A stretch of DNA of 64,000 nucleotides, taken from contig JNKP01000005.1 in NCBI GenBank assembly GCA_000702085.1, forward strand, positions 124,001 to 188,000. The letters run 5' to 3'. This document shows positions 6,139 to 21,757 of this stretch, in pieces. The position numbers and the translations under genes are program-made. Every line of letters starts with the position of its first letter. Positions within the stretch are counted from its first letter, which is position 1. This DNA comes from Lachnospiraceae bacterium P6A3. GTDB lineage: Bacteria > Bacillota > Clostridia > Lachnospirales > Lachnospiraceae. The notes under the pieces were generated by a model that was given only the letters and a program-made list of their open reading frames with translations, did not search any database and was not told the DNA's origin.

Positions 6139-6202
6139 ATATTTTATTCATTAGCGAAAAACTGGTCAAGGATTTACTATGAAATCAGAAGGAGCAAAAA
6201 AG

Positions 6203-6418: not shown

Positions 6419-6438
6419 TTAAAACGGAGGAATGTAAA

Positions 6439-7437: not shown

Positions 7438-7448
7438 TTGCTTTTTGT

Positions 7449-7483
7449 ATGGCGGATACCATCGTATACGGGGTATCTGCCAT
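7449..7483 (+). terminator. Stem-loop after the hydrolase gene, probable terminator
   Basis: ATGGCGGATACC (7449-7460) pairs with GGTATCTGCCAT (7472-7483) with one G-T pair. The tail (TATATTATG) is poor in Ts, so termination may be weak. Confidence 0.55.
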
Positions 7484-7515
7484 TATATTATGACTAAAGA
7501 AGGGCAGGGAATATT

Positions 7516-7806: not shown

Positions 7807-7830
7807 TAATAAAAATCGGAGGAAGAACGA

Positions 7831-8457
7831 ATGAATAAAGTGCTCATCTTAAACGGGAGCCCACATCAACACGGTTGTACAGCGACTGCACTTGATGAAA
7901 TGATCAAAGTGTTTGAAGAGGAAGGAGTCGGGACAGAACTGATCCAGGTGGGGACAAAAGATATCAGAGGCTGTATATCCTGTAACAAATGCAGTGAAAC
8001 CGGAAAGTGTGTGTTTGATGATCTCGTAAATGAAGTCGCACCCAAGCTTGAAGAAGCGGATGGTCTGGTTGTGGGAAGTCCGGTATACTATGGATCTCCA
8101 AATGGAAATATCATTTCCTTCATGGACAGGTTGTTCTACAGCACACATTTTTCAAAGCATATGAAGGTAGGAGCTGCAGTAGTAAGCTGCCGAAGAGGAG
8201 GCAATACGGCAAGCTTTGATGTATTGAACAAATACTTTACCATCAGCGGTATGCCGGTGGCGTCTTCAACTTATTGGAATCAGGTACATGGATTTACTGC
8301 GGATGATGTCAAAAAAGATCTGGAAGGACTTCAGACCATGAGAAACCTTGCACGGAATATGAGCTTTATGATCAAGGCGTTTTCTGATGCCAAGGTGAAA
8401 TACGGTTATCCGGAAGTTGAGAGAGGATGCTTCACCAGCTTCCCGGATGGCAAGTGA
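7831..8457 (+). CDS. NAD(P)H-dependent oxidoreductase of the flavodoxin-like fold
   Basis: The 208-residue protein begins MNKVLILNGSPHQHGCTATAL, the FMN phosphate loop of the NADPH-dependent FMN reductase family, and has GSPVYYGSPNGNIISFMDRL, the second flavin loop and dimer helix. The cysteine set C-x2-C-x2-C-x5-C (CISCNKCSETGKC) is the compact motif seen in iron-sulphur flavoproteins and relatives, so a 4Fe-4S cluster is possible. GGAGGAAGA precedes the ATG. It stands in a row of three related genes that probably arose by local duplication. Confidence 0.85.
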   Translation: MNKVLILNGSPHQHGCTATALDEMIKVFEEEGVGTELIQVGTKDIRGCISCNKCSETGKCVFDDLVNEVAPKLEEADGLVVGSPVYYGSPNGNIISFMDRLFYSTHFSKHMKVGAAVVSCRRGGNTASFDVLNKYFTISGMPVASSTYWNQVHGFTADDVKKDLEGLQTMRNLARNMSFMIKAFSDAKVKYGYPEVERGCFTSFPDGK

Positions 8458-8498
8458 TCGGCGACATAGAATAGAAAAGAAATAAAGGAAGGGAAAAT

Positions 8499-9041
8499 AT
8501 GAGCAAAGTGTTAGTAATTTCTACAAGCCTTCGTGCAAAGAGTAATTCCGACATACTTACGGAAAAGCTTATAGAGGGAGCAAAAGCTTCAGGTCATGAT
8601 GTGGAATATATAGGCCTGAAAGGGAAAAATATCGGTTTCTGTATAGGTTGTCTTGCCTGTCAGAATACCCGGAAATGTGTCATTAAGGATGATGCTGCTG
8701 AGATTGCAGAAAAAGTAAAGAATGCAGATACCCTTGTATTTGCAACTCCGATTTATTATTACGAGATGAGCGGCCAGATGAAAACTCTTTTGGACAGGCT
8801 CAATCCGCTGTATCCTTCAGACTATAAGTTTAGGAATGTATATATGCTCTCTGTTGCGGCTGAGGATGAAGAGTTTGTGCCTAAAAAGGCTGAAAGCGGA
8901 CTTCAGGGATGGGTTGACTGTTTTGAAAAGGCAGAATTCTCCGGTTCCTTATTCTGCGGAGGCATAGGCGATATGGGTGAGGCATCGAAAAAAACTGAAG
9001 AGTTAAATGAAGCCTTCGAATTTGGTAAAGCTCTAAAATAA
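8499..9041 (+). CDS. Flavodoxin family protein with a four-cysteine motif
   Basis: The 180-residue protein shares the layout of its upstream neighbour: VISTSLRAKSNSDIL flavin loop, C-x2-C-x2-C-x5-C (CIGCLACQNTRKC), and ATPIYYYEMSGQMKTLLDRL. It is likely an FMN reductase or iron-sulphur flavoprotein-like electron carrier. AAGGAAGG lies upstream of the ATG. The next gene, a lipoprotein, begins only 12 bases on and may share its mRNA. Confidence 0.85.
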   Translation: MSKVLVISTSLRAKSNSDILTEKLIEGAKASGHDVEYIGLKGKNIGFCIGCLACQNTRKCVIKDDAAEIAEKVKNADTLVFATPIYYYEMSGQMKTLLDRLNPLYPSDYKFRNVYMLSVAAEDEEFVPKKAESGLQGWVDCFEKAEFSGSLFCGGIGDMGEASKKTEELNEAFEFGKALK

Positions 9042-9053
9042 AGGAAGTCTGCG

Positions 9054-9638
9054 ATGAAAACGAAATTGATTTTTTTGGCATTCTGTATGACCATAATGTT
9101 TTGCATGAGCGCCTGTGCAGGGACAACCAAAAACACAAGCTCAGATCTGGGTGCCGTAACTGAAATATCAGCATCAGAAAATAATGAAACGGAAAGTCCG
9201 GAAGAGAATGTCACGCCGGAGGGAACAACTATGTATCAGCTTGCCGTAGAAAATAAAGCAGCAGAGGATGAAGATATTGGAGATAGTACTATGATAATGA
9301 AAATCGGCGATACAAAAGTTAATGTGGATTGGGAAGACAATCAGGCTGTAGAGGCACTGAGGAATATGGCTGAAACCGGTGATGTTACAATTCAGATGTC
9401 AATGTATGGCGGTTTTGAACAGGTGGGCTCAATTGGACAGAGTCTGCCGAGAGATGATAAGCAGACAACAACGAGTTCAGGCGACGTTGTACTATACTCC
9501 GGAAATCAAATGGTTGTGTTCTATGGTTCTAATAGCTGGTCATATACAAGACTTGGACATATATCTGATAAGAATACGGAAGAAATGACTGATCTTCTTT
9601 CCAATGGAGATGTTACTATAACCATTAGCATTGAATAA
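9054..9638 (+). CDS. Lipoprotein with a cyclophilin-like domain
   Basis: A 194-residue exported protein. The N terminus is a lipoprotein signal peptide with the lipidated cysteine at Cys21 (CMSAC). After a Ser/Thr/Glu-rich linker, residues about 80-194 form a cyclophilin-like fold of the small bacterial type (MKIGDTKVNVDWEDNQAVEAL, then SLPRDDKQTTTSSGDVVLYSGNQMVVFYG). These proteins share the barrel with peptidyl-prolyl isomerases but usually lack the isomerase residues. Its placement behind flavodoxin genes is common in Clostridia; the role is unknown. Confidence 0.8.
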   Translation: MKTKLIFLAFCMTIMFCMSACAGTTKNTSSDLGAVTEISASENNETESPEENVTPEGTTMYQLAVENKAAEDEDIGDSTMIMKIGDTKVNVDWEDNQAVEALRNMAETGDVTIQMSMYGGFEQVGSIGQSLPRDDKQTTTSSGDVVLYSGNQMVVFYGSNSWSYTRLGHISDKNTEEMTDLLSNGDVTITISIE

Positions 9639-9699
9639 AACGGACTTTCTGAAAATGTCGGCATAATGTTCGCTTGCTGTCTGTTTTCAGGCGGGATTC

Positions 9700-10020
9700 T
9701 ATTTTTTTCCCTTTTGGCAGAGCTTGGTGCAAGCTTGCCAGAGATTCAGGTGGCTATAATATTCTTCAGAAACCAAGTTTTTATAGCCTTTTTCGAGGCT
9801 TTACGCTTTGCCTGAGACTGGGGTGGCTATAATTTTCTTCAGAAGCTTTGATTTTATAGCCCTTTTCGAGGATTTGCGCCTTGCCGGAGACTCGGGTGGC
9901 TATAATTTTCCTCAGAAGTTTAGTTTTTATAGCCTTTTCTGAGATTTTCGCTTTGCTGAGTGATATACGGGCTATAAATTTCTTCAGAAATTTAGTTTTT
10001 ATAGCCTCGATCATTTTTTT
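9700..10020 (+). repeat. 73-bp tandem repeat array with internal inverted repeats
   Basis: About 3.7 clear units plus a weaker partial unit at the left edge. The repeated GGCTATAA core starts at 9752, 9825, 9898 and 9970, giving periods of 73, 73 and 72. Each unit contains GGCTATAA, an ATTTTCTTCAGAA-like middle, and TTTATAGCC, so each can fold as a hairpin of GGCTATAA against TTATAGCC. Spacers between hairpins (TTTTCGAGG...GAGACTCGGG) also repeat with changes. No sensible protein is coded. Function unknown; see findings. Confidence 0.85.
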
Positions 10021-10040
10021 GAGATTTGAATGGAGGATTT

Positions 10041-10173
10041 ATGGACAGAGATATGACGGTGCCTTGCGAGGAAGGGTTTATCAATATTCGCGTCGGCGCA
10101 ATCATCATGAAGAACGGCATAAAACACCATTCTTTCGGGGATGGTGTTTTTTTGTTAAAATCTATATATAATT
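10041..10173 (+). pseudogene. Nudix gene remnant (5' end and terminator)
   Basis: The first 26 codons (MDRDMTVPCEEGFINIRVGA...) and the SD match the Nudix gene at 3291 almost exactly. The sequence then skips to the base string that follows the intact gene: the AACACCAT/ATGGTGTT terminator and the bases after it (compare 3778-3830). About 400 bp of the coding region are gone, so no Nudix box remains. Differences are mostly at third codon positions, which suggests the copy was once under selection before the deletion. Confidence 0.85.
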
Positions 10174-10187
10174 GGCTTGTGTCAGGA

Positions 10188-10358
10188 GATGTACAAACAG
10201 TGTATGGTTATGCGTTCTGCTTCATTGTATCGTTAATGCGTACGGTGCAATATACAAGATCGATGACGGCATTTTGCCCAAAGCGGTGATGGCCGCATTA
10301 TGATCGTGGCTACATGGCTTATCGTATATATAAACAATAAAAAGAAGATTTTTAAGTA
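10188..10358 (+). pseudogene. CPBP protease gene remnant (3' end, frameshifted)
   Basis: This stretch aligns with the last 170 bases of the CPBP gene at 3876-4631 (TGTACAAA.AGTGTATGGTTATG at the left, AAAAAGAAGATTTTTAA at the right). The 5' three quarters of the gene, with both catalytic motifs, are absent, and a one-base deletion breaks the remaining frame (in the GCATTATGATCGTGG region). It lies in the same order behind the Nudix remnant as in the intact locus. Confidence 0.8.
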
Positions 10359-10387
10359 AGGCGTATTACAAAACAAAGGAGGATGTT

Positions 10388-10741
10388 ATGGGATTATTTG
10401 ATGCATTAAAAAAGAAAAAGAGTATTAGCTTTGAAGAAATCGATTCAATTGAAAAGGCTCAGGCGGAATGCAAAAAGGGAAATCTTGAAAGAATGCATAT
10501 TATGTCGCCGGTCTTTGGCGGAACGGATGATCCTCATAATATCCTGTACGTTCCTGTGGGCATAAACAGAATTAAAGAGGGATATGATGATATTCTGGTT
10601 GGGCTGGTTCAACAGGGAAAAGCTCAGTCCTTTAACTGTAAGCCGGAATATAAAGGCAAAAGTGTAATTCCCAGCAGAATTACCATAACTTCCGGAAAAG
10701 ACGGAGTGGATGTGTTCAATCAGACCATAGAAGTATGGTAA
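10388..10741 (+). CDS. Hypothetical protein, 117 residues
   Basis: I do not recognise this family. The protein starts with a short amphipathic and lysine-rich stretch (MGLFDALKKKKS), then appears as a small mixed alpha/beta domain with a PVFGGTDDPHNILYVPVGI segment. It has no signal peptide, cysteine motif or membrane segment. AGGAGG before the ATG is excellent and the frame is clean, so it is probably real. It is convergent with the RecQ-like gene and shares no operon with the remnants before it. Confidence 0.7.
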   Translation: MGLFDALKKKKSISFEEIDSIEKAQAECKKGNLERMHIMSPVFGGTDDPHNILYVPVGINRIKEGYDDILVGLVQQGKAQSFNCKPEYKGKSVIPSRITITSGKDGVDVFNQTIEVW

Positions 10742-10772
10742 GCTGATGCACTGCATTAAAGAAATTTCAAAA

Positions 10773-10799
10773 CCGAAGAGGTTAAAATTCCCTCTTCGG
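10773..10799 (-). terminator. Terminator at the end of the RecQ-like gene
   Basis: CCGAAGAG (10773-10780) pairs with CTCTTCGG (10792-10799). Read on the minus strand the stem is followed by TTTTGAAATTTC. The stem overlaps the stop codon of the helicase gene. Confidence 0.65.
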
Positions 10800-13067
10800 A
10801 TAACCGATGGCAATGGTATTATATTTTTCACTTACGGTGTCACCGTATAGAAAAATGGTGTCCTTCGGAATTCTCTTTGTTTTTTCAAAAGCAAAATAAG
10901 TTATATATTCATAATCTTTTAAGGCTTGAAGATAATCACCTATATATCTTTTAAGCCTTTTTTTCTTTGCAAGAGCTCCGTTTTCTTTTTCGGGGAAAGT
11001 GATTTTAAGATCTTGCAACATTTTAGTGATGTTGATGTGTACGTTGATCAGGAAGCGCTTGCCTGACTCACTTTTTATGTAGTTCAAATGAAGAGCACGG
11101 GTGTAGGCTATCTGCGAAAGCATATAGTACTTGATCATCAAACCTTCTTTGGATTGCGGCATGGGGATAAGCTCTATGCCTTTTTTGGCAAACTCTTCTA
11201 TCTGCTTCGTTGTCGGGAGACCGAGATAGGCTGAAGGCATTTTGTAATAAATGACATTCCTGTCAAAATAAGAAGACAGTTTATCCCGGTTAACTGTAAG
11301 GAAAGTTCCGTTTTTTATTCGAACGGAAGAAAAACACCCCTTATTTATAAATCTGATCTTTTCGGGGAGATTATCACATTGAGGATTAAAGGCGGATTTC
11401 TCCAGCTTAGTCAGACTTTTTTTGACTTCTTCTATCAGGGGAGATCTTGGATACAGCTCCTGTCCGGAAAGCAAACGAAGGATATCAAGGTGAGAGAAGC
11501 GGGATTCGTCTGCATGAACAAATGAATTGATCGCATCCAGGATCATAATGTCAAAATAATCCGGCATTGCAGGATTATTGAGGCTGTCGGACCGTATCAG
11601 GCACCAGCCCAGAGGTGACCGATTCAGAAGGATGTTTGTTACCGGCTCAATATTTTTCAGATCAAACTCACAGTTGGCGAAATAATCATTAATAAATTTG
11701 GTACGATCCTCGCTTGATTTGAGCAAGGCGTATTTTTTCATGGTTTTCAGACGTTCACCGGAAAGCTTGTGTACGTCACTGATCGATAAGTAGTTCGGAT
11801 CCAGATGTATCCATTCGTTCAGAAGGTCCGCGTCCGAATAATCATAAAGCAATATACAATCACAGGGTCCGTCCGAGTGGCGACCTGCACGTCCCACTTC
11901 CTGATAGAATTCTTCGATTGACCTGGGAATACTGAAATGAATGACATAAGAAACATCACGACCGCATTCTTTATCGATACCCATACCGAATGCGGATGTT
12001 GCGATAACACAGGAAAGCTCTTCTTTATCGTCAAAAAAGAGATCCATTGTTTCTTTGTTCTGTTTTCTGATAGTTTTGGCAGTTTCTACGGATTCTGAAT
12101 CGGCAATATCGGTGGTTCCGTGATATGGAGCACACTTAATGCCTGTGTGTTTTTCGGAAAGATATGCATATAATCTCCGTACATCGGATTTTGAATTACA
12201 GTATATGATACCGAGTTCATCTTTGTGATCGTCAACATAATTTTTGACAAAACGGGATTTTGCTCTGAAAAGAAGTTCTCTCATTTTTTTTTGGAATTCA
12301 TCGATAGTATCGATATCCACCGATTGAATTTCTGCTTCCGAAGGCAGTTCGTTTCTGCAGAAATGATTGGTAAGGTACTTTCCGGTATATGTGATCAGGT
12401 TAAGGTTGTTCCGGGTCATATCTCCGAGAAACAAATTATGTTTTTTGTCGGAAATTTTCAGTCCCAGACTGTTTATTATATCTTCTGTAACAGATTTTGT
12501 TGCGGTTGCGGTAAAGGCGGATAGAACAGGCCTTGTTTTGAAATGCTCTGTAATTGTATCCGATATTTTGCGATATGCGGGCCTGAAATCATGCCCCCAT
12601 AGTGATACACAGTGAGCTTCATCGATCACTACCATGGACACCTCGGAACCAACATGAAAGTCCGAGAAAAAAGAGCCGGTGAACCTCTCCGGAGACATAA
12701 AGACTATTTTATATGTTGAAGGATCTGCTTTAAAACGATTGATTGTTTTTGTGGATGAAGCACTGTGAATTGCAATGGCCCGGAAAGGAGCTTTCGCGCG
12801 TTTCAAATAAGTGTTTAAGTGATCACACTGATCTTTCATGAGCGAAATGATCGGCTCGATGACAATAGTGGTTTTGCCATCTTCTGCCATCTTAATGGCA
12901 GGCAGTTGGTAACACAGGGATTTGCCCGCACCGGTTCCGAGCACGGCAAGAACATCCTTTCCGGACAAAATACGATCAATGACATCCGGCTGGGGATCTC
13001 TGAAATCATTAAAACCAAAGTATTTATTCAGCAGACTCTTAATTTCTCTCTTGAACGGTTTTCCCAT
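10782..13067 (-). CDS. RecQ-like ATP-dependent DNA helicase
   Basis: A 761-residue superfamily 2 helicase. Walker A is GTGAGKS (residues about 45-51), motif II is DEAH (in VIDEAHCVSLWGHDF), motif III is SAFTATAT, and motif VI is QEVGRAGR; the aromatic-rich loop after DEAH is the RecQ hallmark. The region after motif VI has only a C-x-C (CDCILLY) instead of the four-cysteine zinc site, and the last 250 residues do not look like an HRDC domain, so it is a divergent RecQ. GAGGAG before the ATG at 13067 sets the start; longer frames lack an SD. Confidence 0.88.
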   Translation of the reverse strand: MGKPFKREIKSLLNKYFGFNDFRDPQPDVIDRILSGKDVLAVLGTGAGKSLCYQLPAIKMAEDGKTTIVIEPIISLMKDQCDHLNTYLKRAKAPFRAIAIHSASSTKTINRFKADPSTYKIVFMSPERFTGSFFSDFHVGSEVSMVVIDEAHCVSLWGHDFRPAYRKISDTITEHFKTRPVLSAFTATATKSVTEDIINSLGLKISDKKHNLFLGDMTRNNLNLITYTGKYLTNHFCRNELPSEAEIQSVDIDTIDEFQKKMRELLFRAKSRFVKNYVDDHKDELGIIYCNSKSDVRRLYAYLSEKHTGIKCAPYHGTTDIADSESVETAKTIRKQNKETMDLFFDDKEELSCVIATSAFGMGIDKECGRDVSYVIHFSIPRSIEEFYQEVGRAGRHSDGPCDCILLYDYSDADLLNEWIHLDPNYLSISDVHKLSGERLKTMKKYALLKSSEDRTKFINDYFANCEFDLKNIEPVTNILLNRSPLGWCLIRSDSLNNPAMPDYFDIMILDAINSFVHADESRFSHLDILRLLSGQELYPRSPLIEEVKKSLTKLEKSAFNPQCDNLPEKIRFINKGCFSSVRIKNGTFLTVNRDKLSSYFDRNVIYYKMPSAYLGLPTTKQIEEFAKKGIELIPMPQSKEGLMIKYYMLSQIAYTRALHLNYIKSESGKRFLINVHINITKMLQDLKITFPEKENGALAKKKRLKRYIGDYLQALKDYEYITYFAFEKTKRIPKDTIFLYGDTVSEKYNTIAIGYPKREF

Positions 13068-13095
13068 TACTGCTCCTCTTTTTTTAAGTAAATAC

Positions 13096-13104
13096 ATTAT
13101 ATCA
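13096..13104 (-). promoter_or_regulatory. Extended -10 promoter of the RecQ-like gene
   Basis: On the minus strand TGATATAAT (TGN plus TATAAT) lies about 30 bases before the ATG, giving a short leader with the GAGGAG site. Confidence 0.6.
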
Positions 13105-13250
13105 CAAAAACAAGGTTTTAAAATGAATCTGTGTGTGGACATTATGAAAATGTCTGCATGGGATAAAGGAATATTAGGTGCATATGTCGTCATTATATTA
13201 TTAAATAAATAGATCAGAATATCTAAAGCTTTTTATTTCTTTATACTTTA

Positions 13251-13827: not shown

Positions 13828-14178
13828 ATGATGGTAAATGCTTATTCGAACAATAAATTTCATATCGAAGGTTATGTGTCCGGCGTCAGAGAATACTGCC
13901 CCGGCAGGGTGGCAAATGTCACCGTTGCAGTAGATATGGGCAAGGACAAAGATGAAAATACCAGACCCAAGCAGTACATTCAGACAAAATCATTTGTGCC
14001 TGCTTCATACCGCCTGTTAAAGAAGGGGATGAGAGTCAGTATCGAGGGTCACGTTGCTCCCAACAAATATGAAAAGAACGGAGAAATGATTTATACAATT
14101 GATCTTGTCGATGACTATATCACTTTCATGAATATGAAGACACATGTTAAGAGCCCGGAAAAGAATGCAGAAATGTAA
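13828..14178 (+). CDS. Single-stranded DNA-binding protein-like OB-fold protein
   Basis: The 117-residue protein looks like a small SSB/OB fold: NKFHIEGYVSG..., TVAVDMG..., KSFVPASYRLLKKGMRVSIEGHVAPNKYEKNGEMIYTIDLVVDD-like strands, where the GMRVSIEGHV part is the typical SSB strand. It lacks the acidic C-terminal tail (DDDIPF type) that recruits partner proteins. AGAAAGGA precedes the ATG pair at 13828/13831; a longer TTG frame lacks an SD. It opens the first transcription unit of the chaperone-protease-ATPase cluster, so it may coat single-strand DNA for the VirD4-like ATPase, which is inference. Confidence 0.65.
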   Translation: MMVNAYSNNKFHIEGYVSGVREYCPGRVANVTVAVDMGKDKDENTRPKQYIQTKSFVPASYRLLKKGMRVSIEGHVAPNKYEKNGEMIYTIDLVDDYITFMNMKTHVKSPEKNAEM

Positions 14179-14188
14179 AGGAGTAAAA

Positions 14189-14485
14189 ATGTATAATACC
14201 AAAACTTTTGTAATGACGGATAAGAAAAGTGCGAACGAGCAGCTGGACAGAACATACATATGGAAAGCGTTTAACATGCTGCCGGGGTTCGGATTCTTTG
14301 CTTTGGAGATCAAGGATGCTGACGACGTTGTCGACAGCATCCGTTTTAGTAAAAACACAGATGCTGAGCCAGGGAAAAACAAGCTTTATGCACTCCTGGG
14401 AAAATATCCAAACGCTTTTTCACGCATGAATGCTGAGTTTACCTACGGATTCGGTTTTGATCTGAAGATTACCGTATGGCTGTAA
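14189..14485 (+). CDS. Hypothetical protein, 98 residues
   Basis: Not recognised. The protein is soluble and mixed alpha/beta, with a KAFNMLPGFGFFALEIKDADDVVDSIRF core and an aromatic C-terminal end (YGFGFDLKITVWL). AAAGGAG precedes the ATG at 14189; the upstream part of the longer frame overlaps the SSB-like gene and is unlikely to be used. It sits 10 bases behind the SSB-like gene and 13 before the next, so it belongs to the same operon. Confidence 0.7.
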   Translation: MYNTKTFVMTDKKSANEQLDRTYIWKAFNMLPGFGFFALEIKDADDVVDSIRFSKNTDAEPGKNKLYALLGKYPNAFSRMNAEFTYGFGFDLKITVWL

Positions 14486-14498
14486 AGGAGATGAAAAG

Positions 14499-15326
14499 AT
14501 GAGCGAAGTATTAAAAGCTATGGAAGAAATGGCATCCGGAAAATCCATTTTAAACTTTGACAAAATCAGCGAAATAATGAACGCGATCCTGGCAATGAAA
14601 TTTTCGGATTTGGCAGGGGATGCTTACAAAAACGGATTTATAGCCAGAGATATTGCCAAGGGTTTTCGCCTGGAAGCTGAAAAGGTTTCGGAACTGCCAT
14701 TAAAAGACATCCTTTGCATTATAGGTTACGAGCCCGGAGTATCCTGGTTTTCTATACCGGAAGAGGATGAGCGGTTTTACAAAGATTGGAATGATATGAG
14801 CTTCCTGTCCGCAGGAAGCTGTTTTTTGCTTGGAAAGCTCATGCTGGACCGCAAGGATGAACTTCCTTATGTAGAGCAGTTTATGCATATCGATTACTTT
14901 GCACTTATCAATTATTTAAGTGAACGGATGGAAGAACATTACAAAAAGAAATGGTTACCTGAATCCGAAATAATCCAAATGAGTGCGGACATGACCAATC
15001 GATATTTTGAAACCAAAGATTTTGTCTCGGAACAGAATTCGTCAGTTGACAGAAAGGAAATGACTGTTAATGATGTGATACTCACGATCGTTGACCGCGG
15101 ATTAAGAACCTGGGTGTGCGGTACCGAACCTGTAAATAAGTATGTGGAAAGAATAAGTAAGACTTATGAACTGATGAAAGTATTTTTTATGGATTGTATC
15201 CGTATGTCAGTTATACATGAAGACAGAAAATATTTTAAAGAGCTGTTGAAAAGAAGCAGTGAGTTAGATTATTACGAACCGGAAATTCTTGAAGAAATTG
15301 ATTACAAATATTGTTATGAAGAATAG
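14499..15326 (+). CDS. Hypothetical helical protein, 275 residues
   Basis: Not recognised. The protein is acidic and predicted helical almost throughout, without membrane segments, signal peptide or nucleotide motif. The C-terminal 70 residues (TYELMKVFFMDCIRMSVIHEDRKYFKELLKRSSELDYYEPEIL) look like a helical repeat. AAAGGAG lies upstream of the ATG. Its fixed place between the SSB-like and ClpP-like genes suggests a partner or adaptor, possibly of the protease, but nothing in the sequence proves this. Confidence 0.7.
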   Translation: MSEVLKAMEEMASGKSILNFDKISEIMNAILAMKFSDLAGDAYKNGFIARDIAKGFRLEAEKVSELPLKDILCIIGYEPGVSWFSIPEEDERFYKDWNDMSFLSAGSCFLLGKLMLDRKDELPYVEQFMHIDYFALINYLSERMEEHYKKKWLPESEIIQMSADMTNRYFETKDFVSEQNSSVDRKEMTVNDVILTIVDRGLRTWVCGTEPVNKYVERISKTYELMKVFFMDCIRMSVIHEDRKYFKELLKRSSELDYYEPEILEEIDYKYCYEE

Positions 15327-15337
15327 GAGGCCGAAAT

Positions 15338-15952
15338 ATGGCAAATGTAATTGTAGAGAGCGTCAGAGGACTTTCGTCACTACCGATAGACGATATATTC
15401 CTGCGCGACAGGAAAATTTTTCTGATAGGTGAAGTAAATGATGAATCGTGCAATAACCTGATAAAGGAACTCTTGTACCTGGAGTCACAGGATGATACAG
15501 CTCCCATTACACTCTTTATCAATTCACCCGGTGGTGAAGTGGGCTCGGGGCTTGCGGTCTACGATACTATCCGATTGATGAAAGCGCCCGTATATACGCT
15601 TGTGACCGGAATTGCCGCAAGCATGGGAAGCGTTATTCTTCTTGCATGTGATGAGGATAAAAGACTGATGCTTCCAAACAGCAGAATCATGATCCACGAC
15701 TGCAGCTGGGGAAGACACGAGATGGGCGGAAAGAAACCGTACGAAATCGAAGAAGAATTAAACCAGCTGAAAGCCACTAATGAAAAGATAATTTCGATTA
15801 TTGCGGAAAGAACAGGCAAGACCAAGAAAGAGATTGCCAAGGTAACCAAGTATGACAGTTATTTTGATGCGGAAAGTGCTATTAAATTCGGACTGGCATC
15901 CGCGGTGGTCTCTCCCGATACGTTAAGTGGTTTTGCACAGAAAGGAATGTAA
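15338..15952 (+). CDS. ClpP-like serine protease
   Basis: A 204-residue ClpP homologue with the full catalytic triad: Ser95 (GIAASMGS), His120 (SRIMIHDCSWG) and Asp173 (KYDSYFDAESA). FINSPGGEVGSGLAVYDTI is the conserved oxyanion region. ClpP forms a 14-subunit barrel that degrades proteins fed by a Clp ATPase. The protein departs from housekeeping ClpP after His120 (DCSWGRHEMGGKK in place of the usual QPSGG run) and no clpX or clpA lies nearby. AATAGGAGG precedes the ATG. Four bases separate it from the VirD4-like gene, so a link to that ATPase is likely. Confidence 0.88.
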   Translation: MANVIVESVRGLSSLPIDDIFLRDRKIFLIGEVNDESCNNLIKELLYLESQDDTAPITLFINSPGGEVGSGLAVYDTIRLMKAPVYTLVTGIAASMGSVILLACDEDKRLMLPNSRIMIHDCSWGRHEMGGKKPYEIEEELNQLKATNEKIISIIAERTGKTKKEIAKVTKYDSYFDAESAIKFGLASAVVSPDTLSGFAQKGM

Positions 15953-15956
15953 ATAT

Positions 15957-17210
15957 ATGAATAACGATTTGAAATATTCACACAGATACCTGGGCGCCGG
16001 TGTTGCTGTCAGCAATGACACGAGACTGACACACCGCAATAACAATGATTTGATCGTAGGCGGATCGGGGGCGGGAAAATCGGGATCGATAGTATATCCC
16101 CAGCTTAAATCTCTTCAGGATTCCAGCCTGATCGTTGCGGATACAAAAGGACGGCTTGCCGGAATGTTCAGGGAGGAACTGAAGCAGAGAGGATACAAGG
16201 TCAGGGTGTTGGATTTTGTTAAACCTGAAAACAGCTGTGTGTACAATCCGCTTAGCTATATAAAATTCGGAAAAAACGGTTGTCGGGAACAGGATGTTGC
16301 AAAGATTGCCATGGCTTTGATTCCGACAAATTTGCACGGACACGATCCGTTCTGGGCAATGAGTGCAAGAACTGTAATGGAATTTTTGATTTCATATACA
16401 CTTCTTGCTCTCCCCAAAGAAGATCACACCATGTATACAGTTTCAAAACTGTTTCGTATGTTGATGACACCAATGGGAGAAGCAGCGTTTCATCCGTGGG
16501 TTGATAATAATTCGGATACTCTTGCGGGTAAGAGATATGAGCAGATCAAAGCCTGGAAAAGTGCAGATAAGATGCTGTCCAGTATATACAGTTTTGTTAA
16601 TGTGGGCTTAAAGAGCTTTGATTATGAGGAATATCGAAATGTATTCGATCCTTATTTCTTTACCAAAACCAAGAATGCCGGAACCAAGAAGCGTACGGAA
16701 GTGGACATCGCATCCATCGGAAGGGAAAAAACGGTTCTGTTTTTAAATGTTTCTGACAGTGACCACAGTATGGATGAAGTTGTAAACCTGTTCTACACTC
16801 AGGCACTTCAAACACTTATGACGGAAGCTGATTCGAATGAAGACGGACAGCTGAAAGTGCCGGTACGAATCATTATGGATGATTTTGCATCAAGCGCACT
16901 GATTCCCGATTTTGATAAGCTGATCTCTGTCGTAAGAAGCCGTGATATATGGCTGTCGCTGTGCGTCCAGTCTCTTACGCAGCTGGAAACACTATACTCC
17001 CACAGTCAGGCTGTTACTATCATGAATAACTGTGATCATATTATCTATCTGGGCGGAAACGATCTCTCGTCGGCAGAGTATATCGGAACACGCGCAAAGA
17101 GAACTCCCGAGACTATTCTGGAAATGGACAGAACGAAGGAATATATTCTGGAAGCGGGTCACACGGTGCAACTTGTAAATAAGATACCTCCATATCAATT
17201 TGCAGAGTGA
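15957..17210 (+). CDS. VirD4/TraG-like ATPase without membrane segments
   Basis: A 417-residue P-loop ATPase of the type IV coupling protein group. Walker A is GGSGAGKS (residues 35-42) and Walker B is IIMDDFASSA; the following IPDFDKLISVVRSRDIWLSLCVQSLTQLETLYS and CDHIIYLGG segments are the classic TraG/VirD4 signature. Coupling proteins pump DNA or protein into type IV secretion channels and normally begin with two membrane helices; this one starts straight at the ATPase domain and is some 150-200 residues short. The ATG at 15957 follows AAAGGA. A terminator follows, closing the first unit. Confidence 0.88.
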   Translation: MNNDLKYSHRYLGAGVAVSNDTRLTHRNNNDLIVGGSGAGKSGSIVYPQLKSLQDSSLIVADTKGRLAGMFREELKQRGYKVRVLDFVKPENSCVYNPLSYIKFGKNGCREQDVAKIAMALIPTNLHGHDPFWAMSARTVMEFLISYTLLALPKEDHTMYTVSKLFRMLMTPMGEAAFHPWVDNNSDTLAGKRYEQIKAWKSADKMLSSIYSFVNVGLKSFDYEEYRNVFDPYFFTKTKNAGTKKRTEVDIASIGREKTVLFLNVSDSDHSMDEVVNLFYTQALQTLMTEADSNEDGQLKVPVRIIMDDFASSALIPDFDKLISVVRSRDIWLSLCVQSLTQLETLYSHSQAVTIMNNCDHIIYLGGNDLSSAEYIGTRAKRTPETILEMDRTKEYILEAGHTVQLVNKIPPYQFAE

Positions 17211-17224
17211 ATTAAAGAAGAATG

Positions 17225-17259
17225 GCTTTCGAACCAATCGGTTCGGAAGCTATTTTTTT
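17225..17259 (+). terminator. Rho-independent terminator after the VirD4-like gene
   Basis: GCTTTCGAACC (17225-17235) pairs with GGTTCGGAAGC (17240-17250) over AATC, followed by TATTTTTTT. It separates the SSB-to-VirD4 unit from the GrpE-to-membrane-protein unit. Confidence 0.92.
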
Positions 17260-17346
17260 ATGTGTAAAGTTGCCCTGAAAAATCCAAATCTTTCATTTGT
17301 TATTGTTTAGCTACATTAAATCGCCGGACAAAGGAGGAAGAATCGG

Positions 17347-17889
17347 ATGGATGAGTATGAAGATTTCAATGAAAAACTGTTTGATGAGGCTGAGTCCGAA
17401 GAGGATAAGGTCATGCAGATTCTGCTGAACTCCCGTGAACAGGGACAGCTCATAGAGAACATGATCAAAAATCAAATCGAAGTAAAAGACCGGATGATCG
17501 ATAAATTGCATGAGGAACTCGAATACTACAAACAGGATTCTGCGGGAAAATTCATTGATCAGTTTATGAAAGCAATTATTAAGGTCAGAAAGGATATGAT
17601 CCGCATTATCGATTCGGATAAGTGGGATGATTTTTCGGAAGAAGATATTAAGAGAGAGTATCGATATATCTTCGATGATCTGACGGATATGCTGGAGCAG
17701 CAAAATGTGGATGCATATCGCACCGATGCCGGAGAATATTTTGATGCATCTGTTCATCAGGCCAGAATCGAACAAACAGATAACCCTGAACTGGATAGAA
17801 CAATCAAAGAAAGTCTTGGAGAAGGTTATAAGAAAGGAAATAAAGTATTACAGCCCGAAAAAGTAGTCGTATACCGTTACAAAGCCTGA
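17347..17889 (+). CDS. GrpE-like nucleotide exchange factor
   Basis: The 180-residue protein has the GrpE plan: an acidic N-terminal end, a long coiled-coil helix (about residues 25-75, EQGQLIENMIKNQIEVKDRMIDKLHEELEYYKQD), a helical middle, and a beta domain with GEYFDASVHQARIEQTDNPELDRTI and LGEGYKKGNKVLQPEKVVVYRY, matching the GYxxGDRVLRPAxV end of GrpE. It would release ADP from an Hsp70, surely the one coded 29 bases downstream. It is divergent from housekeeping GrpE, which normally lies with hrcA-dnaK-dnaJ; no hrcA or dnaJ is here. AAAGGAGG precedes the ATG. Confidence 0.8.
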   Translation: MDEYEDFNEKLFDEAESEEDKVMQILLNSREQGQLIENMIKNQIEVKDRMIDKLHEELEYYKQDSAGKFIDQFMKAIIKVRKDMIRIIDSDKWDDFSEEDIKREYRYIFDDLTDMLEQQNVDAYRTDAGEYFDASVHQARIEQTDNPELDRTIKESLGEGYKKGNKVLQPEKVVVYRYKA

Positions 17890-17918
17890 CATGATTCATT
17901 ATTAAAGGAGATAAAAGC

Positions 17919-19577
17919 ATGAGCTATGTATTTGGAATTGACCTTGGAACCACATATTCCTGTATTTCGTATATCGATGAGTACGGAAAGCCGGTTGTTT
18001 TGAAAAACAGCGACGGAGATCATACAACCCCTTCGGTCGTTATGGTTGAAAGCAAGGACAATATTATAGTCGGAACCGAAGCAAAGCGTTCTATTGAGAT
18101 TGAACCCGATAAGACCGTTCAGTTCATCAAGAGAAAGATGGGTAAGGAAAATGATACGGTCACCCTTAACGGAATCGAGTATCATGCCCCCGAAATATCA
18201 TCAATGATCCTTAAGAAGATAGTCGGTGATGCAAACGAAGAATTAAGACAGACCGGAGTGCTTAAGGAAGGAGAGAGGATCAAGGATGTAGTTATTACCT
18301 GCCCCGCTTATTTCGGAATGAACGAAAGACAGGCAACCAAAACGGCAGGAGAACTTGCGGGCCTGAATGTTCTTAATATAATCAACGAGCCCACCGCAGC
18401 TGCGATAAGCTACGGAGTTTCGGGAAATGATAAGAATGAAACGGTTCTTGTATATGACCTTGGCGGTGGAACCTTCGATATAACGGTTATGAATATATCC
18501 GGAAATAATATATCCGTTGTATGTACCGGCGGTGACGATCAGCTTGGCGGTAAAGATTGGGACGAAGCACTTATGGAGTACGTTACTTCCCGTTACGAGG
18601 AAGAGAACGGAGAGGACCTGTCCGAAGATCCCGAAGCGATTGCATCCTTGTATGTTGAGGTTGAAGCCTGGAAAAAGTCTTTGACCTCCAGAGAAAAAGT
18701 AAATATCTCGGTTAACGGTCCTGCCGGAAGATTCCGTGAAGAGCTGACCCGTGAGAAATATGAGGAACTGACAAGCGACTTGTTGGACAGAACCAAGAAC
18801 CTTTTGGACGATGTTTTGGCAACTGCCGAAAAGCAGGGCTATCCCATATCAAAAATCGATAAGGTTCTTCTCGTAGGCGGTTCTTCGAGAATGCCTCAGG
18901 TTGCGGCAATGATCGAAAGAGACTATCACGTAACTCCCGTTTTGTCGGATCCCGATGAAGCGGTAGCCAAGGGCGCTGCCATTTATGCCGGCAATGAGAA
19001 GAGCTTCAATGATTTTGTAGCGAGTGAAGCATCAAAAACAGGAAAAACCGTTGAAGAGATCAAGGAACAGAATCTTGTAACCGGAGAACTTGATAAAAAA
19101 TTTGCGCTTTCAGCCGGAGGACCTGCAGGAAACGCTTTGAAAATAAACATTACCAATGTTCTTTCAAGAACCTATGGTATTGAGATTCAGGGCGATGACG
19201 GCAGAATGCATATATTCAATATGCTTATGATCAACGATAAACTTCCCGCAACCAGAACGGAGCAATTCTACACGGTTGCAAACAATCAGTCTTCCATATC
19301 AATAAAGATCCATGAAAGCCGTTCGACGGATTCGACCATGGAAATCGAAGGAAGAGAGCCTCTTACGGAGATTGAAATGAGATTTAATAATATGGTCCCT
19401 CAGGGAACTCCCGTTGTGATGACTACAGCACTCGATAATTCCGGCATTCTTCATATCATTGCGGAAGAACAGCAGGGACATTCCAAGCTTGATACAACAT
19501 TCCAGTTATCGAATCAGATGACTGATGAAGAAATGCAGAGCGCTGCTCTTCGTATGAAATCTGCAAATATTGAATGA
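17919..19577 (+). CDS. Hsp70 (DnaK-like) chaperone lacking the helical lid
   Basis: A 552-residue Hsp70. The ATPase domain has GIDLGTTYSC (residues 6-15), INEPTAAAISYG, VYDLGGGTFDITV and LVGGSSRMPQV. The substrate-binding beta domain follows (about residues 405-520, NVLSRTYGIEIQG...), but the chain ends soon after it, without the roughly 100-residue helical lid and EEVD-like tail; an extra 30-residue charged segment separates the domains. Substrate hold may thus be weak or serve a fixed partner. AAAGGAG precedes the ATG. Paired with GrpE-like upstream and two membrane proteins downstream. Confidence 0.9.
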   Translation: MSYVFGIDLGTTYSCISYIDEYGKPVVLKNSDGDHTTPSVVMVESKDNIIVGTEAKRSIEIEPDKTVQFIKRKMGKENDTVTLNGIEYHAPEISSMILKKIVGDANEELRQTGVLKEGERIKDVVITCPAYFGMNERQATKTAGELAGLNVLNIINEPTAAAISYGVSGNDKNETVLVYDLGGGTFDITVMNISGNNISVVCTGGDDQLGGKDWDEALMEYVTSRYEEENGEDLSEDPEAIASLYVEVEAWKKSLTSREKVNISVNGPAGRFREELTREKYEELTSDLLDRTKNLLDDVLATAEKQGYPISKIDKVLLVGGSSRMPQVAAMIERDYHVTPVLSDPDEAVAKGAAIYAGNEKSFNDFVASEASKTGKTVEEIKEQNLVTGELDKKFALSAGGPAGNALKINITNVLSRTYGIEIQGDDGRMHIFNMLMINDKLPATRTEQFYTVANNQSSISIKIHESRSTDSTMEIEGREPLTEIEMRFNNMVPQGTPVVMTTALDNSGILHIIAEEQQGHSKLDTTFQLSNQMTDEEMQSAALRMKSANIE

Positions 19578-19588
19578 TAGGAGGAATC

Positions 19589-20017
19589 ATGATGGTTGCA
19601 CTTGTGTTGTTTTGGGCGGCTATGTTCTGCATATTGTTTTTCTCCCTGGGGACAATAGTTAAGATACTGCTATCCGTACTCCAGGGTATGTTCGAAACAA
19701 TCAGGACAATCGGATCATTATTAATACCGGCTGTGATGGGGATGATCGGGTTTAGCGTGTTATACGAAATTGCATATGGAATTCGCACACAGGGGGTGGC
19801 AGAGATGATCTTTAACATTGTAATTTATGTGGTAGTAGTCGGAACGGTACTGGCCATTATATCTCATTTCGGAGCTATGCTTTTCGGATTGGCAGTTTCT
19901 ATACTTGAATTGATTTATGAGGTATTATTTCTTGGCCTGCTAAAAATCCAACTGGTTTTTGATAAAGCATATGTTCATTTTCTTCAAGTGATCATAAACA
20001 GATTGGAAAGACGCTAA
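19589..20017 (+). CDS. Small multi-spanning membrane protein
   Basis: Not recognised. The 142-residue product has about four hydrophobic helices (residues about 3-27, 40-62, 72-92 and 95-125) and ends in a short charged tail with no enzymatic motif. AGGAGG five bases before the ATG pair at 19589 sets the start; an in-frame ATG overlapping the dnaK stop is less likely. It lies 11 bases behind the Hsp70 gene and 12 before the next membrane protein, so it probably works with both. Confidence 0.75.
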   Translation: MMVALVLFWAAMFCILFFSLGTIVKILLSVLQGMFETIRTIGSLLIPAVMGMIGFSVLYEIAYGIRTQGVAEMIFNIVIYVVVVGTVLAIISHFGAMLFGLAVSILELIYEVLFLGLLKIQLVFDKAYVHFLQVIINRLERR

Positions 20018-20029
20018 GGAGGTGATGGT

Positions 20030-21757
20030 ATGGCGGATATTCAAGAGAAAATCCTTAGCAAATACAATATTGATATTTCAAAGGAAAACATTCTTAAACT
20101 GTATAAAATAGATAACCCGGATCTTTCCCGGGAGGAACTTGATATGCTTGTAGATGCTACCCGTAAGAGGTGGAATCAGAGCATAAACGGTGCAAATGAG
20201 AAAAACGCAGAAAGAGATAAATCGAGACTGGAGAAAGCGGACAAATACGAACAGATCCTGAGGGATGCTAAACTCCGCAAGGCCATGTTTGATTATTACA
20301 ACAAAGGCGGAAGTAAAAACACACAGTCCGGTACCGGATCTGCTCCTGCGGGTTCTACTGAATTTGCAAGAGAGTATTTTAAACTGATCGCAACCTCCAA
20401 GAAGATCAGGAAGGAAGACGTAGAATTTTTCTTTGATTATTATCAGTCCGAAAGAAAAAACAAGAAGCCGATCCTTGAAATGCTTGAAAAGGATTTCAAA
20501 GTACTCGCACTCGGAAAGGAAGAAAAGTACGCATCCGAGGACGAAGAAATAGAAATCGACGGTAAGACGAAGGATGAGTCCGGCGCTATTATTGTCAATA
20601 AGTTTCAGGAAGCAACGGTTTTAAAGCTGCGTAAGTGTGTCGAATTATATGAAAGGGGAAAACAAAGCACGGACGCATGCGGAAAATATCCTCTATTAAA
20701 TGACAGTCTGTATGCATTTCTGGAACTTGATAAATTTGACAGCATTGAAAGTTTCTCCGATTATGTTTCCGCTAAATCAAAAGAAATATATGCGGTAAGA
20801 CAGGAAAGAGGTACGGATTATGTTCCGCTTGTCGATCTGTTTAACACTCTTCAGACCATAACCAAATACAGAGATGTGGTAGATAACTTCGCGGAAACAA
20901 AACTTTTGATCAAGTATCCTACTCTGACACCCTATATGTATTCTTTCACGGAGATGAAACCGAATACGCTAAAGGGTATTATTTCGGTCGCAGGCAAGGA
21001 TTACTCATTCCGGGATGATACGGATTTCATATTAAATTACTATAATCCGGTATATGGTAACTTCGGAATCGTTAACAGCGGCATAGGAAACCTGATCAGG
21101 AAAGCCGAGAAGAAAGCAAATCAGAATAAGGTTCTTAATAAAATCGATGAGAAACTCGGCAGAAACAAAAAGAAAGATTTACCTTTCTGGGGTGAAGTAA
21201 TACACATGCTTGTTTATTGGCCTGTTTTCCTTGCATATTTCATATTTGAAGTATGTAAAACAATTTTTACCTTATTGCCCAAATTTGCCATTCCGGTTTT
21301 CATCGTTTTGTTTGTATTAGAAAACCTGGCTTTGCCTGAATTTGCCGGTTTTGATAATTTATTGGTCTTCGGTAAGTTTTTCCATAAGGGTGAATGGAGT
21401 GCGTTTATTGAAAATGCATGCGGGCAAGATATAGGAAATTTCTTTGAACTGCTGTGTTATTCATTGTATGAAATCCTGATGCTTTTGACAGTTTATATCC
21501 TTCCGCCGCTCTGCGTTGCAATGTTTGTGTCGGAATCGACGGTGGTGCTTAACAAGCAGTATGACTGGATCGGTTATGAGAGAACATTCAAATCAATCCT
21601 CACAAAGTTAAAGCAGAAAACCGTAGAAAGCTTTAAGGTAAATAAGAAAGTGTTTGCAAAAAAGAGGATTCCGGCTATCATCATTAATCTTCTGGGAGTT
21701 GCTGTAATTGTATTATTGGTTGTTTTGGCCTCAAAGGGATTAAAGTTGGAAAAATAA
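20030..21757 (+). CDS. Large protein with soluble N-terminal part and C-terminal membrane helices
   Basis: Not recognised. The 575-residue protein starts with about 380 soluble, mostly helical and charged residues, including a possible small helical domain at 1-90 (SREELDMLVDATRKRWNQ, DKYEQILRDAKLRKAMFDYY) of the length of a J-like or adaptor domain, though no HPD motif is present. Hydrophobic helices lie at about 388-435 (two), 470-500 and 547-570. AGGAGGTGATGGT precedes the ATG. As last gene of the Hsp70 unit it could anchor the chaperone or ATPase at the membrane, which is inference from order. Confidence 0.75.
   Translation: MADIQEKILSKYNIDISKENILKLYKIDNPDLSREELDMLVDATRKRWNQSINGANEKNAERDKSRLEKADKYEQILRDAKLRKAMFDYYNKGGSKNTQSGTGSAPAGSTEFAREYFKLIATSKKIRKEDVEFFFDYYQSERKNKKPILEMLEKDFKVLALGKEEKYASEDEEIEIDGKTKDESGAIIVNKFQEATVLKLRKCVELYERGKQSTDACGKYPLLNDSLYAFLELDKFDSIESFSDYVSAKSKEIYAVRQERGTDYVPLVDLFNTLQTITKYRDVVDNFAETKLLIKYPTLTPYMYSFTEMKPNTLKGIISVAGKDYSFRDDTDFILNYYNPVYGNFGIVNSGIGNLIRKAEKKANQNKVLNKIDEKLGRNKKKDLPFWGEVIHMLVYWPVFLAYFIFEVCKTIFTLLPKFAIPVFIVLFVLENLALPEFAGFDNLLVFGKFFHKGEWSAFIENACGQDIGNFFELLCYSLYEILMLLTVYILPPLCVAMFVSESTVVLNKQYDWIGYERTFKSILTKLKQKTVESFKVNKKVFAKKRIPAIIINLLGVAVIVLLVVLASKGLKLEK

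What the first reader, a model, noticed from the sequence alone, without database searches (positions are those of the whole stretch)
13828..21757. Uncharacterised SSB-ClpP-VirD4-GrpE-Hsp70-membrane protein cluster
Nine genes in two back-to-back units join parts not usually found together: an OB-fold SSB-like protein, two unknown soluble proteins, a ClpP with intact triad, a coupling-type ATPase, then a GrpE-like factor, an Hsp70 and two unknown membrane proteins. Gaps inside each unit are 4-29 bases. No relaxase, VirB parts, integrase, Clp ATPase, HrcA or DnaJ is present. One reading is a protein or DNA translocation or quality-control machine in which the VirD4-like ATPase feeds the ClpP barrel or a membrane pore, with Hsp70/GrpE as loading factor; a defence system is another. 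All roles beyond the domain names are inference.
Basis: partly seen in the sequence, partly recalled or inferred. Interest (0 to 1): 0.88.

Follow-up and report, generated by a model that had tools for sequence, protein, structure and literature searches.

The report
ClpP protease paired with membrane-free VirD4 motor
Gut clostridia carry a conserved gene set in which a ClpP protease barrel is encoded beside a DNA-transfer-type motor that has lost its membrane anchor, usually with a small helical protein, which suggests a protein-shredding machine driven by an unexpected motor.

Summary
The nine genes are real, but they form two same-strand units in tandem, split by a strong terminator-like hairpin. 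Unit A holds an OB-fold protein, a small protein, a helical protein (P275), ClpP and a VirD4-like ATPase; unit B a GrpE-like protein, an Hsp70 and two membrane proteins. The key finding is wider: in 89 loci picked by VirD4 similarity, ClpP lies within 150 bp on the same strand in 76, in reversed order in 5 of these. These ATPases lack the transmembrane anchor, and nearly all sampled fall in one clade near conjugative CD1115-type coupling proteins. Of 20 long or fragmentary control homologues, none has ClpP within 1.5 kb. Catalytic residues are kept in both proteins. P275-type proteins accompany 61 of 89 loci; a RecQ-like helicase lies near about a fifth. Unit B is rare (3 of 397 genomes, all three also with unit A) and links to a kinase/FHA unit that itself links to unit A. 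The contig has no tyrosine-integrase or relaxase match. Best reading: an energy-dependent protease whose motor is a soluble coupling-type ATPase instead of an AAA+ unfoldase. The association is shown; the mechanism is inferred (about 0.45). Six library searches listed no paper on it.

The parts
13828..14178 (+). OB-fold, SSB-like protein (116 aa)
   Evidence: weak SSB matches, Pfam E 6e-4 and TIGR00621 E 5e-7, both under cut-off; ATG behind AGAAAGGAA
14189..14485 (+). small protein of unknown function (98 aa from this ATG)
   Evidence: no family match passing a cut-off (searched as the longer ORF from 14144); ribosome site AAAGGAG
14499..15326 (+). P275, all-helical third core protein
   Evidence: related proteins within 2.5 kb of the ATPase in 61 of 89 loci; P247-P275 profile match E 7e-24; AlphaFold2 pLDDT 86.9, pTM 0.85, no PDB fold match at E<=0.001
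15338..15952 (+). ClpP peptidase (204 aa), S95-H120-D173
   Evidence: Pfam E 5e-53; PDB ClpP profile E 4e-60; S 76/76, H 76/76, D 74/76 in linked ClpPs
15957..17210 (+). soluble VirD4-like (CD1115 type) ATPase (417 aa), P-loop near the N-terminus, no transmembrane segment by hydropathy
   Evidence: Walker lysine 76/76, Walker B DD 75 of 76 with one gap; no hydrophobic segment before the P-loop in 76/76
17218..17257 (+). intrinsic terminator-like hairpin between the two units
   Evidence: -23.8 kcal/mol, z -7.5 against 200 shuffles; the pattern scan did not list it
17347..17889 (+). GrpE-like nucleotide exchange factor (180 aa)
   Evidence: Pfam E 2.7e-14; relatives at E<=1e-15 in 3 of 397 family genomes, own included
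17919..19577 (+). Hsp70 (552 aa)
   Evidence: Pfam E 4.6e-106; same order GrpE-Hsp70-membrane protein-M575 in L191 and L192
19574..20017 (+). 147-aa multi-spanning membrane protein
   Evidence: five hydrophobic segments; counterpart in L191 E 7e-9; a 147-aa hydrophobic ORF without detectable similarity in the same place in L192
20030..21757 (+). M575, long N-terminal region followed by membrane segments
   Evidence: three hydrophobic segments; 46% and 41% identical relatives in G449 and G153; AlphaFold2 model poor, pLDDT 49
10782..13193 (-). RecQ-like helicase (longest ORF, 803 aa) near the cluster; family recurs near ClpP-VirD4 pairs
   Evidence: TIGR00614 E 2e-81, over cut-off; 19 matches within 7.5 kb of the ATPase among 88 other loci, 0 in the 7.5-10 kb bin and 0 in 342 kb of control sequence

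Best explanation
Unit A encodes an energy-dependent protease of a new make-up. SHOWN: ClpP and a coupling-protein ATPase without its membrane anchor are inherited together as adjacent genes across Lachnospiraceae and Oscillospiraceae, often with a helical third protein; both keep their catalytic residues. INFERRED: the ATPase hexamer docks on the ClpP barrel in place of ClpX/ClpA/ClpC, grips substrates through its all-alpha domain or through the helical protein acting as adaptor, and threads them into ClpP. Coupling proteins already move proteins as well as DNA in secretion systems (established knowledge), so the change needed is loss of the membrane part and gain of a ClpP contact. INFERRED: substrates are probably DNA-bound or replication/repair proteins, because a RecQ-like helicase and sometimes OB-fold proteins lie near. 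INFERRED: unit B (GrpE, Hsp70, two membrane proteins) is an auxiliary chaperone unit at the membrane that could hold substrates open for unit A; a kinase/FHA unit found next to either one would control it by phosphorylation.
For: Among 89 loci gathered with VirD4 queries, 81 hold a ClpP (E<1e-40) in the fetched stretch; 76 have it within 150 bp on the same strand, ClpP first in 71 and VirD4 first in 5; 22 pairs overlap by 4 bases as the ORFs are called. In three of the five wider pairs (L050, L064, L082) the helical protein sits between the two. Control: the Pfam coupling-protein model gave 39 match rows in 40 relatives, 30 of them fetched; with L003 and L004 these make 29 distinct readable genes. 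The 9 short ones include 8 with ClpP nearby (the ninth, L139, is cut by a contig end; two of the eight are the window genome's own; L143 was judged short and soluble by eye), while the 20 long or fragmentary ones have none within 1.5 kb. Linked ATPases: no hydrophobic segment before the P-loop in 76/76, against 13 of the 16 scored controls with at least one. In a tree with 42 of the 76 pairs, 47 linked rows plus L139 form one clade (98/94) next to six long CD1115-type proteins (that join only 90/76); L143 is a second, separate case. Their ClpPs form a matching clade apart from housekeeping ClpP (FastTree 0.994); distance matrices correlate at r 0.83, permutation maximum 0.21. ClpP positions fixed in 17 ClpX-neighboured ClpPs have switched or come loose in the 76 linked ones, many in the N-terminal stretch that in E. 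coli ClpP lines the axial pore and the ATPase-docking rim (numbering recalled). Three accessory ClpPs of the same genus lie directly beside AAA+ ATPases (L175, two in L176). Third protein in 61 of 89. Unit B: GrpE-like and strong M575 relatives in the same 3 of 397 genomes, all among the 13 of 397 with a close VirD4; kinase/FHA unit beside ClpP-VirD4 in L033 and L179, beside a soluble VirD4 without ClpP in L217, and beside unit B in L192.
Against: 8 of 89 loci show no full ClpP near the ATPase (two of these, L051 and L097, on short contigs) and L217 also lacks one, so the ATPase may work alone or with a ClpP elsewhere. Six loci (L036, L037, L038, L041, L070, L105) have a member of an AAA+ protein cluster within 7 kb of the ATPase (Pfam run on L038, L070 and L105 only), and L033 a ClpB-like one about 7.8 kb away; these could be the real unfoldase there. 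The genome keeps a ClpP beside a ClpX-like gene (L181, named by eye). One accessory ClpP (L178) has a nuclease-like, not an AAA+, neighbour. Walker B reads DDF where long coupling proteins mostly read DEF if my pattern caught the site, which could mean altered ATP hydrolysis. 7 of 76 linked ATPases have S, and one C, before the P-loop lysine. RecQ proximity fits a DNA role as well as a protein role.
Confidence: 0.45

Rival explanations
1. A DNA-centred surveillance or defence system: the soluble VirD4-type motor runs on DNA, with RecQ-like helicase and OB-fold help, and foreign or stalled DNA switches on ClpP, which destroys key proteins.
For: RecQ-like helicase enriched near the pair; OB-fold protein in the window; patchy distribution (13 of 397 family genomes at E<=1e-60) and several copies in one assembly (five loci of JAMPDU); scattered restriction and defence-type matches near some loci.
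Against: None of the nine window proteins reaches a convincing PADLOC match; among 137 neighbouring proteins scanned, the 25 families shown (of 119 Pfam and 78 PADLOC) are nearly all matched once, so no recurring defence partner shows.
Confidence: 0.25
2. The ATPase and ClpP share an operon but work apart: ClpP is driven by the cell's ClpX/ClpC and removes a regulator, while the ATPase does something else, such as moving DNA with another partner.
For: The genome has a ClpP beside a ClpX-like gene (L181); some loci lack ClpP; some have an AAA+ protein nearby.
Against: The linked ClpPs form their own clade and have changed many positions that ClpX-neighboured ClpPs keep; both gene orders keep adjacency; a second, separate pairing (L143/L182) exists.
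Confidence: 0.2
3. Remains of an integrative conjugative or mobilisable element whose coupling protein is left over.
For: The ATPase belongs to the CD1115 family of conjugative coupling proteins; one relative (L193) lies on a contig held in the viral collection with genes that look like those of mobile elements (by eye).
Against: No tyrosine-integrase or relaxase match on the contig; the genome's relaxase, a long VirD4 and an integrase lie within 26 kb on contig C2; best listed plasmid match 32.5% and phage match 32.6% identity; catalytic residues kept across the clade.
Confidence: 0.05
4. All nine genes form one obligate machine.
For: Tight packing in the window; the three genomes of 397 with unit B also carry unit A.
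Against: Terminator between the units; units on different contigs in G153 and G449; no GrpE, 147-aa or 575-aa relative near the other pairs.
Confidence: 0.05

Closest known systems
ClpXP / ClpAP / ClpCP proteases
   Same: ClpP with intact triad beside an ATPase gene; the window ClpP is a full ClpP by PDB profile
   Different: the adjacent ATPase is of the VirD4/coupling-protein family, not AAA+ Hsp100; ClpP residues in the N-terminal region are rewritten
Type IV coupling proteins, CD1115 family (VirD4/TraG/TrwB; Cag5 is the only PDB profile hit at E<=0.001)
   Same: nucleotide-binding domain with Walker A and B; PF02534, PF12696 and PF10412 match
   Different: no transmembrane N-terminus, P-loop at residue 29-113 instead of about 105-215, ClpP partner, no relaxase match on the contig
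HerA/FtsK-superfamily ATPase plus effector systems (HerA-Sir2, HerA-DUF4297; recalled, no call)
   Same: hexameric P-loop motor paired with an enzyme
   Different: motor is coupling-protein type and the enzyme is a protease; no convincing PADLOC match
GTPase-centred conflict systems with HSP70 and GrpE (PMC7159879, passages seen)
   Same: Hsp70 plus GrpE in one neighbourhood; another theme there has a protein kinase
   Different: no GTPase match among the nine window proteins; here linked to ClpP and VirD4, which the passages seen do not mention
DnaK-DnaJ-GrpE chaperone operon
   Same: Hsp70 and GrpE
   Different: no J domain found on the contig; two membrane proteins instead

Membership tests
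ATP-dependent Clp protease | ClpP peptidase with Ser-His-Asp triad | tested here: met
ATP-dependent Clp protease | AAA+ Hsp100 ATPase (ClpX, ClpA, ClpC) as partner gene | tested here: not met
   the neighbour is VirD4-like; AAA+ cluster members within 7 kb in six relatives
ATP-dependent Clp protease | ATPase docks on ClpP and drives degradation | not testable with these tools
   needs biochemistry or complex prediction
Type IV coupling protein | coupling-protein ATPase domain with Walker A and B | tested here: met
Type IV coupling protein | N-terminal membrane anchor | tested here: not met
   simple hydropathy: 0 segments before the P-loop in 76 of 76
Type IV coupling protein | relaxase nearby | tested here: not met
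   the only PF03432 match of the genome is on contig C2
Type IV coupling protein | mating-pore (VirB-type) genes nearby | not tested
   no VirB family was searched for; the nine window proteins show none
Integrative conjugative element | integrase and relaxase on the same contig | tested here: not met
   PF00589 and PF03432 only; serine recombinases not searched
DnaK-DnaJ-GrpE chaperone system | Hsp70 and GrpE | tested here: met
DnaK-DnaJ-GrpE chaperone system | J-domain protein in the unit | tested here: inconclusive
   M575 N-terminus looked J-like by eye; PDB profile and profile-profile tests gave nothing; the genome's J-domain matches lie on contigs C1, C2 and C3
Known anti-phage defence systems | match to a PADLOC model over the protein | tested here: not met
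   best matches for the nine proteins are weak (mad8 E 2e-4, PDC-M61B E 0.002, Effector 4TM E 0.01)
GTPase-centred Hsp70/GrpE conflict systems | TRAFAC GTPase in the neighbourhood | tested here: inconclusive
   no GTPase among the nine proteins; the wider window was not scanned

The most novel reading that the evidence does not exclude
A coupling-protein motor of the FtsK/HerA/VirD4 superfamily has left the membrane and replaced the AAA+ unfoldase as the ATP-driven partner of ClpP, with a helical protein of no known fold as its adaptor. In some genomes it is served by a membrane-bound Hsp70-GrpE unit and controlled by Ser/Thr kinases with an FHA protein. This would be the first energy-dependent ClpP partner known to me outside AAA+.
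Probability: 0.4. Interest if true: 0.92.

Novelty: new variant of a known kind. Interest (0 to 1): 0.82.

Why it matters
Every ATP-driven partner of ClpP that I know of is an AAA+ ring. A conserved pairing with a DNA-transfer-type motor, repeated across Lachnospiraceae and Oscillospiraceae, makes it directly testable whether the unfoldase position can be filled by a different P-loop superfamily. It also offers an evolutionary path from secretion motor to protease motor, and a new handle on regulated proteolysis in gut and rumen bacteria.

Tried and rejected
Single-machine reading of all nine genes: rejected because of the terminator and the separate loci. Eroded conjugative element: rejected. 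Phage origin of ClpP (head-maturation protease): PHROG matches exist, but PDB and Pfam profiles give a full ClpP, and the 25 Pfam families shown of 119 for neighbours hold no capsid or portal. Defence island: scattered single matches. That scan took 137 of 341 representative neighbours (chose by nearness, length and total size and printed 141; I left out 4, two of them the window's own GrpE and Hsp70), and only the 25 commonest families are printed.

J-domain reading of M575: not supported. AlphaFold2 on M575 was poor, so no fold search was made with it. P275 fold search found nothing at E<=0.001. A viral-contig scan with the single VirD4 protein found no relative. Third-protein link for the L179/L180 250-aa proteins: not supported; for L183/L184 moderate (P247 E 1e-4, F12 E 1.9e-5). 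Family F87 was left out of the third-protein count: no profile match and, by eye, not real genes.

Limits of the counts: the collection scan used an alignment of members I had already seen beside ClpP, so it favours that clade, and it keeps the best 80 of 293 relatives. The mirror-tree correlation has no control gene pair and includes near-copies, so it shows co-inheritance only. The third-protein and RecQ profiles were built from genes near these same pairs, which favours finding them there. Dropped rows: six of the 80 loci repeat contigs already held (L035, L040, L068, L084, L102, L110). Control rows L117 and L140 repeat L003 and L125; nine of 39 match rows were not fetched there; eight control rows (L117, L140, L144, L134, L130, L141, L136, L131) were left out of the tree.


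Full report
OBSERVATION. The nine ORFs exist at 13828-21757, all on the + strand. Domain searches confirm ClpP, a VirD4-like ATPase of the CD1115 family, GrpE and Hsp70; the SSB-like label is weak and under the cut-offs; the other four proteins match nothing above a cut-off. Between VirD4 and GrpE lies a long hairpin with a T-run (17218-17257, -23.8 kcal/mol, z -7.5), so there are two tandem units, A (13828-17210) and B (17347-21757), probably transcribed apart.

UNIT A IS THE CONSERVED OBJECT. A search of 397 family genomes with the VirD4-like protein gave 13 genomes at E<=1e-60, own included. Reading their surroundings, the window genome's second pair, and 80 loci from named public genomes, I had 89 distinct loci after removing six repeats. 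All were found with VirD4 queries, although the query was an alignment of members already seen beside ClpP. 81 of 89 hold a ClpP in the fetched stretch; 76 have it within 150 bp on the same strand, ClpP first in 71 and VirD4 first in 5; 22 pairs overlap by exactly 4 bases as the ORFs are called. Of the five wider pairs, three (L050, L064, L082) have the helical gene between them. Eight of 89 show no full ClpP: L037, L041, L051, L059, L067, L079, L086, L097; L051 and L097 lie on short contigs and L079 has a cut ClpP about 9.7 kb away. The loci include near-copies (for example L062 and L063, L106 and L109), so 76 is not 76 independent events.

CONTROL. The Pfam coupling-protein model run over 40 relatives gave 39 match rows, 30 of them fetched with 1.5-kb flanks; with L003 and L004 these make 29 distinct readable genes. 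Nine are short: eight have ClpP nearby (in L127 it lies beyond a 248-aa gene, read in full as L179) and the ninth (L139) is cut by a contig end. Two of the eight are the window genome's own pairs, and L143 was judged short and soluble by eye because its P-loop escaped my pattern. The 20 other genes, long or fragmentary, have no ClpP within the flank. Of the 16 of these whose P-loop was caught, 13 have a hydrophobic segment before it. So the ClpP partner goes with loss of the membrane anchor.

DESCENT. In a 65-row tree holding 42 of the 76 pairs, the ClpP-linked ATPases form one clade (47 rows plus L139; 98/94) next to six long CD1115-type proteins (that join 90/76, not firm); one more linked case, L143, falls outside, so the pairing arose at least twice unless lost widely (long branches make the deep part unsure). 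The linked ClpPs likewise form one clade apart from housekeeping ClpPs (FastTree 0.994), L182 again apart. Distances in the two proteins correlate at r 0.83 over 76 pairs, permutation maximum 0.21. Active sites persist: ClpP Ser 76/76, His 76/76, Asp 74/76; Walker A lysine 76/76; Walker B Asp-Asp 75 of 76, one gap. Long coupling proteins mostly show Asp-Glu there where my pattern caught the site.

CLPP SURFACE. Comparing 76 linked ClpPs with 17 ClpPs that have a ClpX-like P-loop gene nearby, positions fixed in the latter have switched or come loose in the linked set, with a run at 16-20 and 22-24 and changes at 45, 46, 51 and 62. From recalled E. coli numbering, these include the axial loop, the first helix and rim residues of the pocket that receives the docking loop of AAA+ ATPases. 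This fits a changed partner; it does not prove one.

THIRD PROTEIN. P275 is predicted all-helical with good confidence (pLDDT 86.9) and has no PDB fold match at E<=0.001. Profile comparison ties it to the 29-locus P247 family (E 7e-24) and ties P247, more weakly, to shorter families that seem to hold only one half. One or other occurs within 2.5 kb on the same strand in 61 of 89 loci (profiles built from these loci).

RECQ-LIKE HELICASE. In 88 other loci, relatives of window 10782-13193 number 19 within 7.5 kb of the ATPase (5, 11 and 3 in successive 2.5-kb bins), with none in the 7.5-10 kb bin (243 kb) and none in 342 kb of control stretches (profile built from the near ones).

UNIT B AND A KINASE UNIT. 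M575 and the GrpE-like protein have strong relatives in the same three of 397 genomes, own included (three further M575 hits are weak, E 0.003-0.006, with stops); of 143 nearer relatives only the window's genome matched M575. All three are among the 13 with a close VirD4, but in G449 and G153 unit B sits on a different contig from the pair. Leaving out the query genome, both of two falling among 12 of 396 has a chance of about 8e-4 (my arithmetic; relatedness not corrected). In G153 unit B runs straight into an HTH-like protein (named by eye), an FHA protein and two Ser/Thr kinases (L192). The same four-gene unit follows ClpP-VirD4 in the window genome's second pair (L033) and in G006 (L179), and lies next to a soluble VirD4 without ClpP in G441 (L217). 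Pfam was run on one kinase and the FHA protein of L179; the others are assigned by similarity. The HTH-like protein occurs at 15 places in 14 of 397 genomes; of these, L033 and L217 have a VirD4 near and L192 has unit B, the other 12 showed neither in the stretches read.

HOW IT LIKELY WORKS. I favour an energy-dependent protease in which the soluble coupling-type ring feeds ClpP. For it: adjacency in both orders, anchor loss, kept active sites, rewritten ClpP positions, and three accessory ClpPs of the genus beside AAA+ ATPases with AAA_lid_6 (L175, twice in L176). Against it: no binding test, nine loci without ClpP counting L217, six loci with an AAA+ cluster member within 7 kb, and one accessory ClpP (L178) beside a nuclease-like protein. 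A DNA-sensing or defence role is the main rival; RecQ proximity fits it, the defence library does not.

MOBILITY. Contig C4 has no tyrosine-integrase or relaxase match; those of this genome lie on C1 and C2, where the relaxase, a long VirD4 and an integrase sit within 26 kb. The best listed plasmid and phage matches are 32.5% and 32.6% identical (15 of 392 and 15 of 28 records listed, all records under 60%); listed plasmid genes with annotation are conjugative proteins. Two contigs of the viral collection hold relatives, one with ClpP.

LITERATURE. Six searches of the open library listed no paper that by title or abstract treats the pair; I judged from listings. Passages of PMC12419801 and PMC7159879 were read; the latter describes Hsp70-GrpE in GTPase conflict systems. 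Most subscription papers and all preprints are not held, so this is not proof of absence.

Noticed in passing
L033 (own genome, C1:355000-374900), 4045-11054: A second ClpP-VirD4 pair in the same genome, followed by an HTH-like protein, an FHA protein and two membrane Ser/Thr kinases.
   Followed up: yes
L175 8053-10772; L176 1959-4470 and 10539-13165: Accessory ClpPs directly beside AAA+ ATPases with AAA_lid_6, two such pairs within 12 kb in one genome; possibly a separate ClpP partner family.
   Followed up: partly
L182 1238-3351 (G097): A VirD4-like protein with an unusual P-loop region overlaps a ClpP gene by 4 bases and falls outside the main clade: a second, independent pairing.
   Followed up: partly
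L048, L049, L052, L053, L090: Five ClpP-VirD4 copies in one Ruminococcus assembly (JAMPDU01).
   Followed up: no
L105 6265-9927: A 1220-aa protein with AAA domains and a Peptidase_M41 (FtsH-like) domain just upstream of VirD4-ClpP.
   Followed up: no
L073, L079, L086: Small heat-shock (Hsp20-like, by eye) genes near the soluble VirD4.
   Followed up: no
L191 5464-8890: Two tandem copies of the unit B Hsp70 in G449.
   Followed up: no
L217 14003-15283: A soluble VirD4-like ATPase next to the kinase/FHA unit with no ClpP in the 18-kb stretch.
   Followed up: partly
L178 116-3376: An accessory ClpP upstream of a long protein (cut by the contig end) with a PD-(D/E)XK nuclease match.
   Followed up: no
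L193: ClpP-VirD4 with a 207-aa upstream protein on a contig of the viral collection.
   Followed up: partly
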